This document shows, in pieces, positions 13,352 through 23,302 of a stretch of 44,305 nt of DNA (position 1 is its first letter; every line of letters begins with the position of its first letter). Where the stretch lies: positions 1 to 44,305 of the forward strand of contig JALOTJ010000010.1 in assembly GCA_025457965.1 (NCBI GenBank), written 5' to 3'. The position numbers and the translations under genes were made by a program. The stretch comes from Spirochaetota bacterium. Lineage in GTDB: Bacteria > Spirochaetota > UBA4802 > UBA5368. The notes under the pieces were generated by a model. That model saw only the letters and a program-made list of their open reading frames with translations, was not told the origin of the DNA and did not search any database.

Positions 13352-14338
13352 ATGCACCGGGGATTTGCCAATCTCGAGAGCTTCCTGTCCCGGCACGGCA
13401 GGTTCATCATTTCCACGCACGAAAGTCCCGACGGCGACGGACTCGGCGCCGAGATCGGCTTTCGCGAGTTACTCACCTTAATGGGCAGGGAGTCACTCAT
13501 ACTGAACTCGGACCCGGTCCCCGACAAGTTCCAGTTCATCGACCCCGAACACGAAATCATTGTATATGGCGATTCCACCGTGCTCCCGTACCCGCTCGAG
13601 GAATACGCCGTTTTCGTCCTGGATACCAACGATTTCGACAACGTGGGCTCCATCTTCGCAAAGCTCAGGGACAGGGTTAAAGAGGTCTTTATCATCGACC
13701 ACCACGAGGGCGGCAGGGACAAACTTGAATCAAATTTTATCAAGGTCGAAGCTTCATCCACCTGCGAGATCATCTACAGCCTCTTCGCCTATTTCGGCAT
13801 GACACCGAGCTCCAAGTCCGCCCAGGCCATTTACGCCGGCATGCTCTTCGATACCGGCTCGTTCCGCTATCCCAAGACCACGCCCGAAACCTTCAGAATC
13901 GCCGGTCACCTCGTTGAACTCGGCGCCGACCCGTTCAAATCGTACGAGCACATATACGAAAATAATTCCCTGGCCAGCTTTGCCCTGCGCGCGATGATCC
14001 TTTCAACGATGGAGGTGCATCACGGTGGCAGGCTTATCGCGATGAAGCTTACGCCGGACATGATAGACAGGTCGGGGGCGAGCTTCTCGGAAGGCGAGCT
14101 TGCGATCAACATGCCGCTCACCGTGCACGGAGTCGTCGCCAGCATACTGGTAAAGCAGGATTCGAGCGGCCCCGTAAAGGTGAGCCTGCGCACCAAGGGC
14201 GATTACGACGTGGCGGAAATCGCTATAGCGAACGGCGGCGGCGGGCATAAGAACGCAGCGGGTTACAAGTCCGGCCGCCCGTTCGAGGAAACCTTCCTCA
14301 GGGCAATCGGAGACATGGACAGGTTTTTCAGGGACTAG
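13352..14338 (+). CDS. DHH-family phosphoesterase (NrnA-like nanoRNase/pAp phosphatase)
   Basis: ISTHESPDGDGLGAEIGF, VLDTNDFDNVG, FIIDHHEGG, YAGMLFDTGSFRYPKTTPET, C-terminal GGGGHKNAAGYKS. Confidence 0.92.
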   Translation: MHRGFANLESFLSRHGRFIISTHESPDGDGLGAEIGFRELLTLMGRESLILNSDPVPDKFQFIDPEHEIIVYGDSTVLPYPLEEYAVFVLDTNDFDNVGSIFAKLRDRVKEVFIIDHHEGGRDKLESNFIKVEASSTCEIIYSLFAYFGMTPSSKSAQAIYAGMLFDTGSFRYPKTTPETFRIAGHLVELGADPFKSYEHIYENNSLASFALRAMILSTMEVHHGGRLIAMKLTPDMIDRSGASFSEGELAINMPLTVHGVVASILVKQDSSGPVKVSLRTKGDYDVAEIAIANGGGGHKNAAGYKSGRPFEETFLRAIGDMDRFFRD

Positions 14339-15273
14339 AGCAGGCCGATCAGCTTTCCAATCTTACGGGCATCAATGCCCGTAAGCCTTCTGCGTATCGA
14401 AGCCTCATCGTCTCCGCGACCAAAGTGAATCGTAAGCGACACCTCTCCCCCTTCGAAATACGGCGGGATGCCCACCGAACAGCCTCCGCGTTCTATCTCC
14501 GAGGCAATAAGAACGGCCTTCTCCTTCATCTCCGAATAGGCGGGATATCTCAGGGAATACACGGCTTCATGCAAAAGCTGTTCGTCCCTCCGGCGGTCCC
14601 CTGATTCCGGCACCGGCATCCCGAGCACGGTCGAGAGCGTTCCGTCCCTTCTCAGGATGTCCGACATCATCTCAATGAGGTCCCTGAAGATATTGATGCG
14701 GATGCCCGCGTCATCGATCCTGCCGGCCAGAAACTCGTGTGCCTCGGCCGGGAGTCCCAGGAGGCCTTTAATCACCTTGAAGCCGACGTCGCGAAGATCG
14801 ATGTAGTCCCTCAGGCGCCCGGGAAGCCTCATTACTGACCCGGCCATTTCGGCCGAAGAGAACTCCGCGGGAACCTCGAGGCCGTGCCGGACCGTCCGCG
14901 AAAGTTCCTCTTCCCCGAGCCCCAGCGTTCGGAGTATGGCCGCCATCCTCATCCTGCCCACGGGCCCCGCCTCGTTACGGGCGCATTTCAGCACCGCACG
15001 GTCCCTGTAGGCAATTGGATTGATCACATCCACGACAACCGCGTTGAAGTTTTCGACACCGGCACGCTCGAGCGCGGCAAGGCGGTTGTGGCCGAAAACC
15101 GGAACCAGGCGCCCGGCCTCCCGAAGAAGGACCGGACTTTCAAGCAGGCCGAAGCGTTCTATTGATTTCACAAGCCCCTCGAGGGGGAGCTTCCTCGACA
15201 CCCGGTAGGTGGTGCTCGGAAGATCGACCCCGGCCAGGGAAACGGGACGGACGGCGCCGAAAACGCTCGCCAT
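14335..15273 (-). CDS. ParB/Srx-like N-terminal domain protein
   Basis: LPLEGLVKSIERFGLLESPVLLREAGRLVPVFGHNRLAALERAGVENFNAVVVD. Confidence 0.7.
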   Translation of the reverse strand: MASVFGAVRPVSLAGVDLPSTTYRVSRKLPLEGLVKSIERFGLLESPVLLREAGRLVPVFGHNRLAALERAGVENFNAVVVDVINPIAYRDRAVLKCARNEAGPVGRMRMAAILRTLGLGEEELSRTVRHGLEVPAEFSSAEMAGSVMRLPGRLRDYIDLRDVGFKVIKGLLGLPAEAHEFLAGRIDDAGIRINIFRDLIEMMSDILRRDGTLSTVLGMPVPESGDRRRDEQLLHEAVYSLRYPAYSEMKEKAVLIASEIERGGCSVGIPPYFEGGEVSLTIHFGRGDDEASIRRRLTGIDARKIGKLIGLL

Positions 15274-15275
15274 GT

Positions 15276-16844
15276 TCAGAGGATTCCCCTCAGGTATTCA
15301 TCGAGCTCGCCTGGATACACCACCATGACCTTCTGCAGTTTTCCGAGGTTGTTTTTGGCGGGCTCGGTCAGGTCGACGGTGGTGACAAAAATGCCCTGTT
15401 TGGCCTTGATATCGTTTATGGCCTGGGCGAAATTTCGAAGCGGTATCTCACCCACCATGGTCTTGGACCAGCGCCTGACCCAGATGAGCACCTTTTCCTT
15501 CGTGGCGTTGGAGGTGGCCATAAAATCGACACCGTCCGCTTCACGGTATGTCTGCAGTATCTGGTCTACCCGGTAGCCCATCTTCGTGACCACCCTGCTC
15601 GCCATAATGCGGAAATTCTCGGTATCAAGTTTCAGGAGTTTTTCGAGCCTGTCTCCGGAGCCCGCCGCCAGGCGCACCTCGCTTTCAACCTCGCGTGCGA
15701 CGCCGATGCGCGTCGTGACCATGATGTTTTTAATATCCAGGGATCTGTCGCTCTTCAATCCGCAGATCTCCCATATAAAACCCGCCGGGAATGCGCCGGT
15801 GCTCCAGTCATCTATCCTGTCCATCACCGAGGCCTCAAAGTCGTCGCGGGACTGCCGGTACCCGCCGTCCATTTCCCTTCGCAGCATGGTCACCAGACGG
15901 TTGATCTCGTTATAGGTCTTGTCGATCTGGTACAGCTCGTTCCAGTATTCATAGGCCTTGTTGACCTGTTCGGCTTTGATACACGCGTATCCAAGGTCGT
16001 ACAGAGCGAGCATTATCTCGCCCTGCGACTCGTTCTCGCGGGCGGTGTGCAGCAGGTCCTCAAAGCCCTTTACCGCCTCGTCGTTCTTTTTCGACTGCAC
16101 GAGAAGGAAGGCGAGGAGCCGTTTTGCCACGTATCGCACCTCGAACTCCTGGGCCCTGTCGGCGATCGCCGAGGCATGGGGAATTGCCTGCTTGAAGTCC
16201 CTCTTCCGCTGGAGAGCGAACGCCATGGCCAGGTTCGCCGCGTCTGAATTCGGACGCAGGGCGAGGGCGGACTTGAAATAATTGATGGCCTCGCCGGTCT
16301 TCTGGTTCTGATAGCTCGTAATACCGGCCCCGAACAACACCTCGAAATCCTCTCTGCTGATCTTGACCAGGCGGTCGAAATACTTCTGGGCGAAATCGAA
16401 CTCCTCCTGCCCGAGGGCGATAAAAGCGACATGATAGAGCGCCTCGGCGTCGGCCGGGTAGACACCGAGTATTTCGAGATATCCGCGGAAGGCCTTCTCG
16501 ACATCATCCCGCAGATAGTAGGCATGGGCGAGTTTTTTTTGAACGTCCAGCGGCTCTATTTCGTAGGTAAACTTGCCGATTCTCAGCAATTCCTCGAACT
16601 GGATTATGGCCTGGTCTATCTCGTCCAGTTTCATGTAAAGTCCGGCCAGCCTGTAGTGCGCCGTCGGGTCGTCGGGACGGTTTTCCAGCACCTTCCGGTA
16701 TTCTATTACCGATTCCTTCAGCATGCCCTGCTTTTCAAACAGCTCGGCCCTTCGAACCGGATCAAATTTCGGCCGGATATAGACAAGGTAATACCCGACC
16801 GCACCCAGGCCGCCGAGGATGATAAGGATGAAGGTAATAAGCAT
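15276..16844 (-). CDS. Membrane-anchored TPR protein with C-terminal Mrr-like (PD-(D/E)XK fold) domain, copy B
   Basis: N-terminal TM MLITFILIILGGLGAVGYYLVYIRP, multiple TPRs (YRKVLENRPDDPTAHYRLAGLYMKLDEIDQAI), C-terminal ENFRIMASRVVTKMGYRVDQILQTYREADGVDFMATS...KQGIFVTTVDLTEPAKNNL; start moved to 16844. Confidence 0.75.
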   Translation of the reverse strand: MLITFILIILGGLGAVGYYLVYIRPKFDPVRRAELFEKQGMLKESVIEYRKVLENRPDDPTAHYRLAGLYMKLDEIDQAIIQFEELLRIGKFTYEIEPLDVQKKLAHAYYLRDDVEKAFRGYLEILGVYPADAEALYHVAFIALGQEEFDFAQKYFDRLVKISREDFEVLFGAGITSYQNQKTGEAINYFKSALALRPNSDAANLAMAFALQRKRDFKQAIPHASAIADRAQEFEVRYVAKRLLAFLLVQSKKNDEAVKGFEDLLHTARENESQGEIMLALYDLGYACIKAEQVNKAYEYWNELYQIDKTYNEINRLVTMLRREMDGGYRQSRDDFEASVMDRIDDWSTGAFPAGFIWEICGLKSDRSLDIKNIMVTTRIGVAREVESEVRLAAGSGDRLEKLLKLDTENFRIMASRVVTKMGYRVDQILQTYREADGVDFMATSNATKEKVLIWVRRWSKTMVGEIPLRNFAQAINDIKAKQGIFVTTVDLTEPAKNNLGKLQKVMVVYPGELDEYLRGIL

Positions 16845-16870
16845 TTTCCAGGTACCCGTTACCGCCCGGC

Positions 16871-19126
16871 TTAGCGAAAAAATTTCACGATGGTAGGCCA
16901 GCCGTTGATCGTTACGGCGTTGCCGAAGTCCTTCTTGATGACAAAATCGCTCTCCTGCCTGATCTTCGCCCTGAATGGCAGGTTGATCATGATCTCGGGC
17001 GGGACGAATTTCGGCAGATCGATGAACCTGTACTGCACCTCGCTCCCCGAGGAGACGACCTTGAAGCTTATCGGGCCGAAGCGCGACGGGGCATCCTGTA
17101 CCACGATCTCCGAGCCCGGGCGAAACCACTCCTCACGCGGCGCCGGCAGCACATCCAGCCGGTTCTCAAAGTCCATAAACAGCATGTTGCGCATCGTCAG
17201 GGCGAACGCCGCCATCGCCTCGACCGAATCGCCGTCACCCATTATACCGGCCCCCGAACCGGGGTGAAGTATCTCCTGTAAACAGAAGCGCTTCCCACCC
17301 CTTCTCATAAATTCGCTTATAAGCCCGTGATACCGCATATCGCGGCAAAAGATGAGGTTCGAGGCGAACAGGAGGGACAGCACCGTATCCCAGCCACCGA
17401 GCGCCCGTACATAGAGCGGCACGCCGCCGTACAGTTCCGCCAATCCGCTGACCATTGTGCCGAGTTCGTCCGTGGAGAGTTCCTCTATCCTGTATGGATA
17501 GCCGGCCGCGGCCATGTATCCGGCCGCCCCGCCGCCGTCCAGGCGCTCGTCGGGATTACCGGACACGGCCTTTCCTTCTCCCCCGGGAAACAATGTACGG
17601 ACCTCCGCGGCTATGATGCCACCCAGCCGCTTCGCCTCTTTCGAGAACCTGTTTTCATCGCCGAAAAGTCCCATACAGCGCGCGAGATAGGAATACTGGC
17701 GAAGGGCGTTGCAGATCAACACGAGGTCGTAGACGTGAGGCGAAGCCGTGAGATAAAAGCCGAGGGAGTTGCCTCCCTCACGGCGAGAGACCGATTTAAC
17801 CCCGCTGGCATAATCGCACAGTGATCCGGCCGCTGTTTTCAGCGCCGCATAACCCTTCCGGAGGTAATCCAGATCGCGCGAGTGGATGAAGCAGTCCGCG
17901 AACGCCGAAACAAGGTAGGCGACGCCGATATTCCGCTTAAACGACGGCTCGACGACCCCCTCAAAACGCGGCATGATCGAGCGGATTATTCCCTCGGCTT
18001 CCGAATGGTACCCCATCCGGTTGCACGCGCAGACCATAAGGCACGAGCGCTTCATCGCCACCGAATCAAAATCGCGTCTTCCCGCTCCGGTCTCGCGGTT
18101 GATCGCGTTGAGCAGGGAAAGCTTGGACGCGTAAAGCCAGCGCACGACCGGTTCTTCCGGGAAGGAAAGTTTAATCCCGCTTTTTATTCTGAGGCCGGCG
18201 AAAGCGCCGAATTCCTCGGCAGCGCGCGCGTAATTAAACCGCGAAGGGGCTATCGCGTTCCTCCGCGAAAGGCTGACCCGGAGGTGGATCTTCCGCGAGC
18301 CCTTCTGGAGAACGTACCCGAGCGCGAGCGTGGCCATGCCGAACTCGCACGAGGCCTTAAGCGCGTCCCGCGAGCCGGCGACCGGGGTCAGGTCACCGGA
18401 CAGGCCGGAACCGTTCGTAACGAAATCAGGCCTGGCCTCCATCACCGCGCGTTCTGAACCGTCGATCCTCACCGTTCTCGAGTCCTTTCTGTATTCGATC
18501 TCGCCGACCGTACCCAGTAGGGTTGTGTCATACGGTCGAAACACCAGCAGCAGGAGTGCGCCATCGGACTTTTTAGGCAAGAAGGACTCGAGCGCGACAA
18601 CGGCCTCGTCAACGCCCGTGCGCGCGCCGAACACCGTCTGGGTCAGGCCGAATTCCTTTTCCTTCCATCCGGTTTTTATGATGGAGGTAAGGGGGTCCCG
18701 TTCCTGCTCAATCCCGCCGGCAAGATCCTGGGGTCTGAAAACACGTTGCCCGATAACGACCCAGGTTTCCACCGACCATCCCGCGTAGGTTGGAGAGAGC
18801 ATGCCTGACGTATCGATCCGCAATGCATCGCTCGAGAGAAGGTTGGTAAAATACAACCAGTCCCTGTTGGAGTGATTGGCGAGCTGGGGCGGCAGTATGC
18901 CGCTCCCCGATCGGGATGCCCCGTCCGCAAGCCGGTTTACCCAGTACGGCCAGCGGTACGATGAAAACCTCTGAAAGAGAAGATAATTACGAATGCCCGT
19001 GCCGATTCCCGCCGTCATCGAGACGAGCTTGTCGCGGTCGATGAAAGCGGGAATGTCACCCGCGAAGCCCCCGCCGACGGCACTGTGGGGCTTTTCGCGC
19101 ATCCGGAAAATCCCATTAATGCTCAT
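16871..19126 (-). CDS. Six-hairpin-glycosidase-like / glucanotransferase-like protein of unknown specificity
   Basis: 751 aa with N-terminal beta-rich region then all-helical toroid-like region (RRDFDSVAMKRSCLMVCACNRMGYHSEAEGIIRSIM); fold-level inference only. Confidence 0.45.
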   Translation of the reverse strand: MSINGIFRMREKPHSAVGGGFAGDIPAFIDRDKLVSMTAGIGTGIRNYLLFQRFSSYRWPYWVNRLADGASRSGSGILPPQLANHSNRDWLYFTNLLSSDALRIDTSGMLSPTYAGWSVETWVVIGQRVFRPQDLAGGIEQERDPLTSIIKTGWKEKEFGLTQTVFGARTGVDEAVVALESFLPKKSDGALLLLVFRPYDTTLLGTVGEIEYRKDSRTVRIDGSERAVMEARPDFVTNGSGLSGDLTPVAGSRDALKASCEFGMATLALGYVLQKGSRKIHLRVSLSRRNAIAPSRFNYARAAEEFGAFAGLRIKSGIKLSFPEEPVVRWLYASKLSLLNAINRETGAGRRDFDSVAMKRSCLMVCACNRMGYHSEAEGIIRSIMPRFEGVVEPSFKRNIGVAYLVSAFADCFIHSRDLDYLRKGYAALKTAAGSLCDYASGVKSVSRREGGNSLGFYLTASPHVYDLVLICNALRQYSYLARCMGLFGDENRFSKEAKRLGGIIAAEVRTLFPGGEGKAVSGNPDERLDGGGAAGYMAAAGYPYRIEELSTDELGTMVSGLAELYGGVPLYVRALGGWDTVLSLLFASNLIFCRDMRYHGLISEFMRRGGKRFCLQEILHPGSGAGIMGDGDSVEAMAAFALTMRNMLFMDFENRLDVLPAPREEWFRPGSEIVVQDAPSRFGPISFKVVSSGSEVQYRFIDLPKFVPPEIMINLPFRAKIRQESDFVIKKDFGNAVTINGWPTIVKFFR

Positions 19127-19142
19127 TTGAATGAACCCCGGT

Positions 19143-19478
19143 TCAGAAATGCCTGAGCGCCTCTTCCTCCGTTTCGTACACTTCGAACATATCCATGAGC
19201 TCCACGACCTCGAATATCTTCTTGACCGCGTTATTCATGTTGCAGAGTTCAAGCTTGCGTTTGGATTCCTTGAGCACCCTCATGGTGGAAACGAAGATCC
19301 TCAGGCCCGAACTGCTCATATATTCAACCTGTCCCAGGTTGAGAAGCAGGCTGCACTGCGCTTCCTGCTCGATTATCCTGTTGATTTCCTTCTCCACATC
19401 GGCGGACACATGGACATCAAGTTTCCCGTGCAGGTAAATTACGATGACGTTATCGACTTTTCTGGTTTTAAGATCCAT
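19143..19478 (-). CDS. STAS-domain anti-sigma factor antagonist
   Basis: VIVIYLHGKLDVHVSADVEKEINRIIEQEAQCSLLLNLGQVEYMSSSGLRIFVSTMRVLKESKRKLELCNMNNAVKKIFEVVELMDMFEVYETEEEAL. Confidence 0.93.
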   Translation of the reverse strand: MDLKTRKVDNVIVIYLHGKLDVHVSADVEKEINRIIEQEAQCSLLLNLGQVEYMSSSGLRIFVSTMRVLKESKRKLELCNMNNAVKKIFEVVELMDMFEVYETEEEALRHF

Positions 19479-19588: not shown

Positions 19589-20035
19589 TCACTCTTCGCC
19601 TGAACGGGCGGACTTTCTCGTAATCGCGAGCGCCGCCGCCGTAATGACAAGCACAAACAAAAACATCACCCCCAGCGCCACCGCCAGCGTATGCTGAAAG
19701 GCAAGCCCGTTTTTGATAAGAACCCATGACGCCAGAAGCGGAAATAAAATTCCCGTAAAATAAACCAGCCCCCTGTACCTGAGCGGGTCAAAGAGCGGCA
19801 GTACCATCGATGCTCCCGCTGAAAACACCATCGCCGCAAAGCCCCGTGTGACAAAATAAAGGGGAGCGACGAAGGCGTCGTATTTGATCTGATTAAACCA
19901 GTCCTCGGCCAGCGGCAGACCCAGGAGGGATCCGACGAAAAGCGGCGACAGATAAAATGCGATGCCGGCGGTGATATACAACACACCGCTGACCAGAATG
20001 ACCACCTGCAGGATGTTCGTCAGCTTCGAACGCAT
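19589..20035 (-). CDS. Small integral membrane protein, four predicted TM segments
   Basis: Hydrophobic segments LQVVILVSGVLYITAGIAFYL, GFAAMVFSAGASMVLPLF, GLVYFTGILFPLLASWVLI, LAVALGVMFLFVLVITAAALAI. Confidence 0.65.
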   Translation of the reverse strand: MRSKLTNILQVVILVSGVLYITAGIAFYLSPLFVGSLLGLPLAEDWFNQIKYDAFVAPLYFVTRGFAAMVFSAGASMVLPLFDPLRYRGLVYFTGILFPLLASWVLIKNGLAFQHTLAVALGVMFLFVLVITAAALAITRKSARSGEE

Positions 20036-20101: not shown

Positions 20102-21928
20102 TTACAGTCCGTGTTCCTTCAACAATTTATTCGAGAGCTCGTCCGAAAGTTCCAGTATTTTTTTCAAATTATACTCGCTTTCGTCGATTTCAATTACGAT
20201 GTTTTTCGATGTAATTCCGCCAGGACGGCCTTCCGGCAGTAAAAGAGAGCAATGGTCCAGATAACGGTCGTAAAACTTTAAAACCCGCCTGTCGCGGAAG
20301 CGGAGCCTGCCCCGGTTTCGCACCGATACCGAGAGAACCTCGTCAACGTCGGTACGGAGCAGTTCCTCGGGGCGCACCCTTCTCCGCGGGAAGCCGGAGT
20401 GATACAGACCCCCGGCAATCCCCACGGACTCGCAGACCGGATGGAGCATAAACGAGGCCGCCATGCATTCCGCGAGGCCGCCCGTACTGAAGACGCGAAC
20501 CCCCTCCCCGCGCTCGTCCGCCAGCATGGCAGTGGGCAGGCTCCTGAGCATCTCGATGCGGGCCGAACCGGCCAGTTCGCGGGCATGGCGGGCCGCTCCA
20601 GCGCTCTTGATGATGAACTCATCGGGAAAGGTGATGCCGAGCATGGCGTTGATGCGTTCCTCCGAGAAAAAAGACTCCACCGCTTTAAGAAAGGATTCGT
20701 CATCCTCCATAAGCGCGTAAAGAGCAGCGAGACAGTAGCTCATGCCGGAAGAATAAAGAAGGTCGACTTTCCTGCCGGCACGCTGGTAGGCCGCGAGAAA
20801 ACCCGCGTAGGCCACGGAATCGGCGAGTCTCGTTTCAAGCACCATGCCGCGCTTCCTGCCCCGTATGAACTCCATGAACTCCGCGGCGTTCTCGCCGCCG
20901 GTGAGCTCCTTCAGGGTTTCGTGCGCGGGGGCCTTTTTCGTAACGCCAAGGTCCTCGAGAATAATGCCGCCCTCGAACGAACGCGTGGAGCGCGCGTGGA
21001 AGGCGTTGAGCGTGTACAGTACCCGCTGCCCATCGCGAAGGCCCGAGTCGAGCAGCGGATAGAGCGCCCTCCGTTCCTTCGGGCTCGTTACAATCGGGAA
21101 GATGACATCGGACAATTCGAAGACCCTGTCGCGCAGTTCGTCGTCGCGCCCGGACAGGTCTATGACGATAAACCGGTATTCCCGCGACAGCGCGAAGAGG
21201 ATAGGCGAGAGTATTTCCGGGTTGACCCTGACCCTGGAGCCAAAGGCGATGTTCATGAGAGAGAGGTTGTCGTCGACCGATTCGATACGCTCATCAATGA
21301 ACAAATCGGCGGCGAGGTCCTCCTCGTCCTTCTGGGATACGGCCGTGGTGATCTTTCTTTCAAAGATATTGAACACCGAGTCGCCGGTATACGATACGTC
21401 GAGAATTATCGTCTTCCCCTCGCGTGCGCAGCAAAGGCCGAGAAAAGACGAGAGCAGGGACTTCCCCGAAGCTTCCGTCCGGCCGAACACCGTTATAATC
21501 CGCGCCGCCCTGCCACCGTACTTCTTTGCCACGGACGAGAGCTCGAATCCCATCGCGCCGACGGTGCGCAGATATCCGCGCATGGCCTTGTAGGAATTGA
21601 GGAAAAAACGGTAGACGCTTTTAACCTCGAACACAAAGAGAGATGAATCAACGAGCGCCCGCACCTGCCCGCGGTGTCGGTTCTGCGTAAAGGGGATGTC
21701 GCCGAAGAACGAGCCCGGCGCCATGCAGACGACCTCGCCCCGTCCGGGGGCTTCCATCTCGAAGAGCCCCGTTATCACCACGCCGAGGGAGTTGTCTCTG
21801 CCGGGATCGAAAATCTTTCCGCGCTGAACGTTAACGATTCGCCCGGCGCCGCGCAGACGTCCGATTTCCTCGTCCCTGCAATGGCGGAAGAGGGGAATGT
21901 CGCTCAGGATATGATCGATAAAATCCAT
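20102..21928 (-). CDS. NTE-like protein: cyclic-nucleotide-binding domain + MinD/ParA-like NTPase + degenerate patatin-like domain
   Basis: cNMP: RGKIFDPGRDNSLGVVITGLFEME...APGSFFGDIPF; MinD-like: ITVFGRTEASGKSLLSSFLGLCCAREGKTIILDVSY and FIVIDLSGRDDELRDRVFELSDVIFPIVTSP; patatin-like: GMVLETRLADSVAYAGFLAAYQRAGRKVDLLYSSGMSYCLAALYAL. Confidence 0.75.
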   Translation of the reverse strand: MDFIDHILSDIPLFRHCRDEEIGRLRGAGRIVNVQRGKIFDPGRDNSLGVVITGLFEMEAPGRGEVVCMAPGSFFGDIPFTQNRHRGQVRALVDSSLFVFEVKSVYRFFLNSYKAMRGYLRTVGAMGFELSSVAKKYGGRAARIITVFGRTEASGKSLLSSFLGLCCAREGKTIILDVSYTGDSVFNIFERKITTAVSQKDEEDLAADLFIDERIESVDDNLSLMNIAFGSRVRVNPEILSPILFALSREYRFIVIDLSGRDDELRDRVFELSDVIFPIVTSPKERRALYPLLDSGLRDGQRVLYTLNAFHARSTRSFEGGIILEDLGVTKKAPAHETLKELTGGENAAEFMEFIRGRKRGMVLETRLADSVAYAGFLAAYQRAGRKVDLLYSSGMSYCLAALYALMEDDESFLKAVESFFSEERINAMLGITFPDEFIIKSAGAARHARELAGSARIEMLRSLPTAMLADERGEGVRVFSTGGLAECMAASFMLHPVCESVGIAGGLYHSGFPRRRVRPEELLRTDVDEVLSVSVRNRGRLRFRDRRVLKFYDRYLDHCSLLLPEGRPGGITSKNIVIEIDESEYNLKKILELSDELSNKLLKEHGL

Positions 21929-21943: not shown

Positions 21944-23302
21944 TCAGGCTTCGGCGGATTTCAACAGCCGGACAATATCGGCCTTGCCGAGAAGATCGAT
22001 GGGCCGCGTACTCGCGAATTCGGCCGCCATCTGCGAGTAATCGCCGGTGCTGACGACTATGACGCGCGTGGCATTGCGCGGCTTCATGCTTTCGTGGAGT
22101 TTCCTTAGCAGCTTGTCCGACACCGTTTCGGTCGTGCGCAGGATGCGCACGATCCTGTTGCTCATGCGGGTGTTACGCCATTTCCCTTCGGTCTCGGTGG
22201 CGAGGATGTCTATCTCGGAATCGCTGATTATCTCTATGTCCATGACGGTAAGCCCCAGCGATTCGGCTATCTTTCTGCAGGTGTGCTCGAACTGGGCGAG
22301 CCCCGCTATCATGAAGTCCTTGACACGGTCGTCCTGCCTGAAGTCCGAATACGCGCGCAGCTTTTCCTGAACATCGCGGAAATTCTTGTTCACCGAGGCG
22401 ATCTGCTCCCAGTTTGAGATCGCCGACTGCAGATCGCGCACGTTTTCCTGCGACGAGGCCAGGAAGTAACGCAGGTTGAGTTCGGTATCGCTCCCCCGCT
22501 TGGCATACTTGATCCCCCGCTCGAACTCGATTATCGCTTTGGGGAAAAGCTCTTTCTCGTGATAGCAGGTGCCCTTGGCCAGAAAGCACTTTACTTTTAT
22601 GTCCTCGCTCTTCTGAGCGGTCTCGAATTCCTTGATCGCCCACTCGTAGTCGCCGACCTGCCGGAGGACCAGGCCGAGGAAATAATGGGCCTTGAAGTTA
22701 CCCTGGTCTATCTTGATTGCCTCGAGGAACATCTGCTTGGCCTCGTTATAGGAGGCGTTGCGGTAAAGCACCTGGCCAAGGTAATAATATGACATGTCGT
22801 GTCGGTTGTTGTTGGCGATGCTTTTCTTGAAGTACGCGGCGGACCTGTCGATCGCCCCCGAGTCGAAAAGCATCATGCCGAGCTGAAAGAAATTTTCATA
22901 GTTTAAAGGGTCTATCTTTGTAAGAATGAGGTATTCCTTTTTGGCGTCCTCGACGGCGTTACGCTCCCTGAATATCCTGGCGAGCTTCGAGCGCACGTTC
23001 ACCTCGTTCACCTTGTCATCGAAGCGCGAGATCTTGAGCACCTGGCGGTATTCGAGGATTGCGAACTGCGGGTTGTTTTCCCTGATATACGCTTCAGCCA
23101 GAAGGTAATGCGCATAAGCGTTGCGGTCGTCCTTTTCAAGTATCGCGTTCAGCTTTTTGATTGCGAGTTTCGTCTGCCCAATCTCGATCATCTTGGCTAT
23201 TTCTTCGATCTTGCGGGGAAAAATGTAGGTGCTGAAGATGTAAAGGCCGAAAATGCTGAGCATTATGAAAAAGACAAATATTATTACATAGGTCACTATC
23301 AT
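21944..23302 (-). CDS. Membrane-anchored TPR protein with C-terminal Mrr-like domain, copy A
   Basis: N-terminal TM VIIFVFFIMLSIFGLYIFSTYIF; multiple TPRs; C-terminal FEHTCRKIAESLGLTVMDIEIISDSEIDILATETEGKW...TRVIVVSTGDYSQMAAEFA. Confidence 0.72.
   Translation of the reverse strand: MIVTYVIIFVFFIMLSIFGLYIFSTYIFPRKIEEIAKMIEIGQTKLAIKKLNAILEKDDRNAYAHYLLAEAYIRENNPQFAILEYRQVLKISRFDDKVNEVNVRSKLARIFRERNAVEDAKKEYLILTKIDPLNYENFFQLGMMLFDSGAIDRSAAYFKKSIANNNRHDMSYYYLGQVLYRNASYNEAKQMFLEAIKIDQGNFKAHYFLGLVLRQVGDYEWAIKEFETAQKSEDIKVKCFLAKGTCYHEKELFPKAIIEFERGIKYAKRGSDTELNLRYFLASSQENVRDLQSAISNWEQIASVNKNFRDVQEKLRAYSDFRQDDRVKDFMIAGLAQFEHTCRKIAESLGLTVMDIEIISDSEIDILATETEGKWRNTRMSNRIVRILRTTETVSDKLLRKLHESMKPRNATRVIVVSTGDYSQMAAEFASTRPIDLLGKADIVRLLKSAEA

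What the first reader, a model, noticed from the sequence alone, without database searches (positions are those of the whole stretch)
20102..20850. Patatin-like domain that appears to have lost every catalytic motif (NTE-family pseudoenzyme)
Aligning by eye to patatins: the oxyanion region 'LVLxGGGARGLAHIGVLKALEEAG' reads MVLETRLADSVAYAGFLAAYQRAG. The nucleophile region 'DLIxGTSMGxxxGALYA' reads DLLYSSGMSYCLAALYA, so nucleophile Ser becomes Gly. The 'LADAVRASxxIPGxFxPVxxDGxxYxDGG' block reads LAECMAASFMLHPVCESVGIAGGLYHSGF, so catalytic Asp becomes Ser. Fold landmarks persist while the dyad and the Gly-rich loop do not. NTE-type proteins (cNMP plus patatin) are known; a bacterial catalytically dead version beside STAS and TPR genes would be a regulatory repurposing.
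Basis: partly seen in the sequence, partly recalled or inferred. Interest (0 to 1): 0.7.

Follow-up and report, generated by a model that had tools for sequence, protein, structure and literature searches.

The report
Catalytically dead NTE-like patatin in spirochaetes
A spirochaete protein built like the nerve-toxin target enzyme NTE (nucleotide-sensor-like domain, P-loop domain, patatin lipase fold) has lost the lipase active site in every relative examined, yet is kept by selection in a fixed seven-gene neighbourhood with other apparently dead enzymes, so it probably works as a signalling or scaffold part rather than an enzyme.

Summary
Evidence for the fold: hhalign 98.8% against intact spirochaete NTE-type proteins; profile hit to PlpD, E 2.7e-7; AlphaFold pLDDT 90.6, best PDB match PlpD, E 3.6e-12.

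It is not a single decayed copy. Orthologs occur in 44 of 46 sampled genomes of the order. Among 41 aligned sequences the catalytic Asp is never Asp (Ser 36, Ala 4, Asn 1), the Gly-rich oxyanion loop is gone, and GxSxG never occurs. The nucleophile position itself varies (Ser 22, Gly 13, Ala 4, Cys 1, Phe 1), so Ser-to-Gly applies only to some. Close relatives show dN/dS of about 0.1.

The gene lies in a conserved order: TPR-Mrr A, pseudo-NTE, membrane protein, STAS, large unknown, TPR-Mrr B, ParB-like. Both Mrr domains appear by eye to lack the catalytic Lys. Homologues beside TPR-Mrr A in other lineages have lost the P-loop as well.

Best reading: a non-catalytic scaffold/sensor subunit in a membrane-linked signalling complex. 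Loss of the motifs is shown; function is inferred.

The parts
20102..21928 (-). pseudo-NTE gene, 608 aa (cNMP-like + P-loop + pseudopatatin)
   Evidence: orthologs in 44 of 46 sampled genomes of the order; AlphaFold full model pLDDT 88.6
21554..21928 (-). cNMP-binding-like domain, residues about 1-125; the Glu and Arg that hold the nucleotide are not conserved
   Evidence: PF00027 24.9 bits, E 1.9e-5, below the 27.5-bit cut-off; 37/41 orthologs hit; column counts
20894..21511 (-). MinD/ParA-like P-loop domain, residues about 140-345
   Evidence: profile hits PF-32 3k9g, E 8.7e-12; Foldseek 3ea0 E about 1e-6; AAA_31 in 6/41 members
21458..21484 (-). Walker A GRTEASGKS (residues 149-157); Lys kept in 34/41 orthologs
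20105..20875 (-). pseudopatatin domain, residues 352-608
20819..20848 (-). position of the Gly-rich oxyanion loop (residues 361-370); the GGGxR motif is absent
   Evidence: columns 365, 366, 367, 370 have G/G/G/R in 2, 0, 11 and 2 of 41
20738..20752 (-). nucleophile elbow SSGMS (residues 393-397) in place of GxSxG; nucleophile position is Gly395
   Evidence: helix starts at this residue in the model
20390..20398 (-). SGF (residues 511-513) in place of catalytic DG[GA]; Asp position is Ser511
   Evidence: D in 0/41
21944..23302 (-). TPR-Mrr A: N-terminal TM helix, TPRs, Mrr-like domain apparently lacking the catalytic Lys
   Evidence: adjacent upstream in 20/20 genomes
19589..20035 (-). small multi-TM protein without a Pfam family
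   Evidence: 17/20
19143..19478 (-). STAS protein with a conserved SSGL (phosphorylatable-type) motif
   Evidence: PF01740 E 1.3e-21; SSGL in 17/17
16871..19126 (-). 751-aa conserved protein, possibly six-hairpin-glycosidase-like; identity weak
15276..16844 (-). TPR-Mrr B: TM helix, TPRs, Mrr-like domain with V/F-R-R-W where QxK is expected; start re-set from orthologs
14335..15273 (-). ParB/Spo0J-like protein (distinct from the chromosomal ParB elsewhere in the genome)
   Evidence: profile hits ParB 4umk E 4.4e-10; PF02195 in 9/16; separate ParB on contig 9

Best explanation
The gene encodes an NTE-architecture pseudoenzyme. The patatin fold is retained as a non-catalytic protein- or lipid-binding module, and the protein acts as a cytoplasmic scaffold/sensor subunit that docks on the membrane-anchored TPR-Mrr A protein and, with the STAS protein, takes part in a membrane-linked signalling (partner-switch type) complex. 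Shown here: the fold, the family-wide absence of the catalytic motifs, purifying selection, and the fixed gene neighbourhood. Inferred: physical docking, the signalling role, and nucleotide (ATP) switching by the P-loop domain in the lineages that keep it.
For: Patatin fold. Catalytic Asp 0/41, GGGxR lost, GxSxG 0/41. dN/dS about 0.1 in the patatin domain, like the other two domains. TPR-Mrr A directly upstream (gap -4 to 47 nt) in 20/20 genomes, and the full seven-gene order in 13 of 20. Homologues beside TPR-Mrr A in families f22, f38, f41 and f46, also without catalytic residues where inspected. STAS SSGL 17/17. TPR-Mrr A is beside a GAF-SpoIIE phosphatase, the usual partner of STAS anti-sigma antagonists, in other lineages. 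The genome keeps two other, intact patatins.
Against: No experiment. 22/41 orthologs keep Ser at the nucleophile position. Plant pPLAIII patatins have an altered GXGXG box and are still described as active in lipid metabolism (PMC4253999). NTE-invariant positions outside the active site are also poorly kept (27% against 20% at catalytic positions, p 0.13), so preferential loss of catalysis is not shown statistically. No direct evidence of interaction with TPR or STAS proteins.
Confidence: 0.6

Rival explanations
1. The P-loop domain is the working part: an ATP-dependent ParA/MinD-like switch that works with the operon's ParB-like protein in positioning or segregation, the pseudopatatin being an adaptor.
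For: Walker A Lys 34/41, Asp177 and Asp257 41/41; ParB-like gene in the same operon; AF model matches a ParA family ATPase.
Against: The signature Lys of the deviant Walker A (KGGxGK) is absent (Lys 4/41 at column 151); Walker A Lys is lost in 7/41 and in all four homologues inspected outside the order; the ParB-like gene was not found at family f5 loci or with the far homologues, though several of those stretches are short.
Confidence: 0.2
2. It is a cryptic hydrolase with rearranged catalytic residues (for example an SxSxG nucleophile with a migrated acid).
For: Ser at the nucleophile position in 22/41 and a conserved Ser511; pPLAIII precedent; pseudoenzymes with migrated residues are documented (PMC10211241).
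Against: The nucleophile position is Gly, Ala, Cys or Phe in 19/41; the Gly-rich oxyanion loop is lost; no Asp at the DGG position in any; the only invariant residues of the domain are Pro, Arg, Glu and Gly, none a usual nucleophile.
Confidence: 0.13
3. A decaying gene without function.
For: Loss of catalytic motifs; shorter homologues in some other lineages (419-476 aa).
Against: Open full-length frame in nearly all genomes of the order, dN/dS about 0.1, fixed neighbourhood.
Confidence: 0.02

Closest known systems
NTE-type patatins (PNPLA6/7 and bacterial cNMP-patatin proteins)
   Same: cNMP domain, middle domain and C-terminal patatin in one chain; hhalign aligns 532 columns end to end with intact spirochaete members, 99.5%, E 2e-22
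   Different: GGGxR, GxSxG and DGG all absent; the P-loop is better preserved than in the intact spirochaete NTE-type proteins aligned here
PlpD of Pseudomonas (5fya)
   Same: best structural and profile match of the patatin domain
   Different: PlpD is an active secreted lipase (own knowledge); this protein has no evident signal peptide or TM helix and lacks the dyad
Plant pPLAIII patatins
   Same: altered esterase box without the nucleophile Ser (GXGXG)
   Different: pPLAIII are treated as lipid-metabolising enzymes; here the Asp and oxyanion loop are lost too
MinD/ParA ATPases (PF-32, 3ea0)
   Same: middle domain fold and Walker A
   Different: no signature Lys; placed between cNMP and patatin domains

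Membership tests
NTE-type patatin phospholipases | patatin fold | tested here: met
NTE-type patatin phospholipases | N-terminal cNMP-binding domain | tested here: met
   PF00027 E 1.9e-5 but below the curated cut-off for this sequence; 37/41 orthologs; Foldseek
NTE-type patatin phospholipases | GxSxG nucleophile motif | tested here: not met
   0/41; first Gly never present
NTE-type patatin phospholipases | DG[GA] catalytic Asp | tested here: not met
   0/41 Asp
NTE-type patatin phospholipases | GGGxR oxyanion loop | tested here: not met
NTE-type patatin phospholipases | esterase activity | not testable with these tools
   needs a bench assay
MinD/ParA ATPases | deviant Walker A with signature Lys (KGGxGK[ST]) | tested here: not met
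   GK[ST] Lys kept in 34/41 but signature Lys only in 4/41
MinD/ParA ATPases | fold | tested here: met
cyclic-nucleotide receptors | phosphate-binding cassette Glu and Arg | tested here: not met
   column 77 Glu 7/41; Arg at 86 in 19/41; exact alignment of the Arg uncertain

The most novel reading that the evidence does not exclude
A spirochaete signalling or envelope complex assembled largely from dead enzymes (pseudo-NTE plus two membrane-anchored TPR pseudo-nucleases) with STAS and ParB-like partners, in which the patatin fold serves as a non-catalytic lipid- or protein-sensing module.
Probability: 0.35. Interest if true: 0.75.

Novelty: new variant of a known kind. Interest (0 to 1): 0.58.

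Why it matters
Patatin/NTE pseudoenzymes conserved across a bacterial clade did not turn up in the literature searched here (open-licence papers only). The family gives natural sequences in which the NTE domains have lost their expected ligand or catalytic residues to different degrees while the architecture is kept, so it can separate the scaffold role of NTE-type proteins from their lipase role. TPR-Mrr A, its constant partner here, matches strongly in 247 of 395 spirochaete genomes searched and has no assigned function that I found.

Tried and rejected
Single degenerate copy or pseudogene: rejected. Chance resemblance to patatin: rejected. The 222-251 aa proteins next to TPR-Mrr A in other families as shortened pseudo-NTEs: rejected, no profile similarity, and the two tested by Pfam are calcineurin-like phosphoesterases. 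Preferential loss of catalytic over other NTE-invariant positions: tested, not significant. Phylogeny: intact patatins fall together on one side of the unrooted tree (98% support) from all pseudo sequences, compatible with one loss, but rooting and the nearest intact sister are unresolved; midpoint rooting was misleading. Phmmer hits of the full protein to PDB PdxS (E about 0.2) are chance. Literature searches for patatin pseudoenzymes and for TP0095 found nothing relevant.

Full report
What is there. The minus-strand ORF 20102-21928 encodes 608 aa. The quoted motif-like peptides are present at the stated place. Pfam sees only a sub-threshold cNMP domain in the single sequence, and patatin at E 0.21 in the isolated C-terminus. 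The genome is a spirochaete MAG: the nearest named records are 'Spirochaetes bacterium' MAGs at 86 and 79% identity.

Patatin identity. In a sample of 395 genomes of the phylum, 44 of 46 genomes of the same order have a match, mostly full length. Forty-one full-length sequences, 21-92% identical to the window protein, were aligned (A1, A2). Seventeen of the 41 hit PF01734 directly. The domain profile hits PlpD. Hhalign against seven intact spirochaete cNMP-patatin proteins gives 98.8% for the domain and 99.5% end to end. The AlphaFold domain model (pLDDT 90.6) matches PlpD, CapE, CapV, patatin, iPLA2 and others in Foldseek. In the model a strand ends just before residue 395 and a helix begins there, as at a nucleophile elbow.

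Catalytic motifs. Column counts over 41 sequences: Asp of DGG is Ser 36, Ala 4, Asn 1; the last Gly of DGG is Tyr, Phe or Met; first Gly of GxSxG 0/41; nucleophile position Ser 22, Gly 13, Ala 4, Cys 1, Phe 1; GGGxR essentially gone. The intact spirochaete proteins aligned beside them keep these motifs. The dyad is therefore broken in every ortholog, but the strict Ser-to-Gly change applies only to this genus and some others. Residues kept from NTE-type patatins include Pro435, Glu459, Gly483 (41/41) and Arg525 (40/41). Overall retention of NTE-invariant positions is low (27%), and catalytic positions (20%) are not significantly worse (p 0.13); the zero counts for the Asp and the first Gly are the firm part.

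Selection. Nei-Gojobori dN/dS among five genomes of the genus is 0.09-0.11 for the patatin domain and 0.07-0.13 for its motif-bearing core, similar to the other domains. The gene is maintained.

The other domains. Between the cNMP and patatin parts is a MinD/ParA-like P-loop domain: profile hit to PF-32 (E 8.7e-12), Foldseek hit to a ParA ATPase. The GK[ST] Lys is kept in 34/41 and two Asp in 41/41, but not the signature Lys. The cNMP cassette lacks a conserved Glu and Arg. So one of the three domains may still bind its expected ligand.

Neighbourhood. In 20 genomes spanning the order, the upstream gene is always a membrane-anchored TPR-Mrr protein (A), with a gap of -4 to 47 nt. In 13 of the 20 the full order is TPR-Mrr A, pseudo-NTE, small membrane protein, STAS, 751-aa unknown, TPR-Mrr B, ParB-like; two more lack only the 751-aa gene. 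At the three family f5 loci only A and the pseudo-NTE were found; two of those lie near contig ends. The Mrr-like domains of A and B lack, by eye in the alignment, the Lys of the Q/E-x-K motif; no intact Mrr was aligned as a control, so this is a reading and not a test. The ParB-like protein matches ParB structures (E 4.4e-10) and is not the genome's ordinary ParB. STAS keeps SSGL in 17/17.

Beyond the order. TPR-Mrr A matches in 247 of 395 genomes of the phylum at E<=1e-60. Its downstream neighbour is a divergent pseudo-NTE homologue in families f22, f38, f41 and f46. L125 of f41 was not in the model and scored 2.3e-91. In the four inspected (L117-L120) the Walker A, Walker B Asp, GxSxG and DGG are all gone. 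Elsewhere the neighbour differs: a calcineurin-like phosphoesterase in the two cases tested, or a GAF-SpoIIE phosphatase in family f34. SpoIIE phosphatases act on STAS proteins in partner-switch systems (general knowledge), which is why I place the pseudo-NTE in such a pathway; this is guilt by association.

Mechanism. Most likely the patatin domain is a non-catalytic binding module and the protein a subunit of a TPR-anchored signalling complex. Shown: fold, loss of motifs, selection, neighbourhood. Inferred: docking, signalling, any ATP switching.

Novelty. I found no described patatin pseudoenzyme family of bacteria in the open-licence literature searched; subscription papers are not covered. 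Loss of the Ser box alone is known in plant pPLAIII. I file it as a new variant of a known kind.

Noticed in passing
window 21947-23302 and 15279-16844: Two TM-TPR-Mrr proteins whose Mrr domains appear to lack the catalytic Lys; A is found in 247 of 395 spirochaete genomes at E<=1e-60.
   Followed up: partly
window 14335-15273: Operon ParB-like protein without a significant single-sequence Pfam hit, distinct from the chromosomal ParB on contig 9.
   Followed up: partly
window 16871-19126: 751-aa protein with over 40 invariant residues in 15 orthologs and no clear family; one ortholog weakly hits a six-hairpin glycosidase model (E 5.5e-4).
   Followed up: partly
L127, L129, L140: In family f34 the gene after TPR-Mrr A is a large GAF-SpoIIE-HATPase protein.
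   Followed up: partly
window 15276-17129: The longest ORF starts about 95 codons too early; orthologs start at the Met at 16844.
   Followed up: yes
L122, L123, L124: Pseudo-NTE homologues of 419-476 aa that look shortened relative to the 560-610 aa forms.
   Followed up: no
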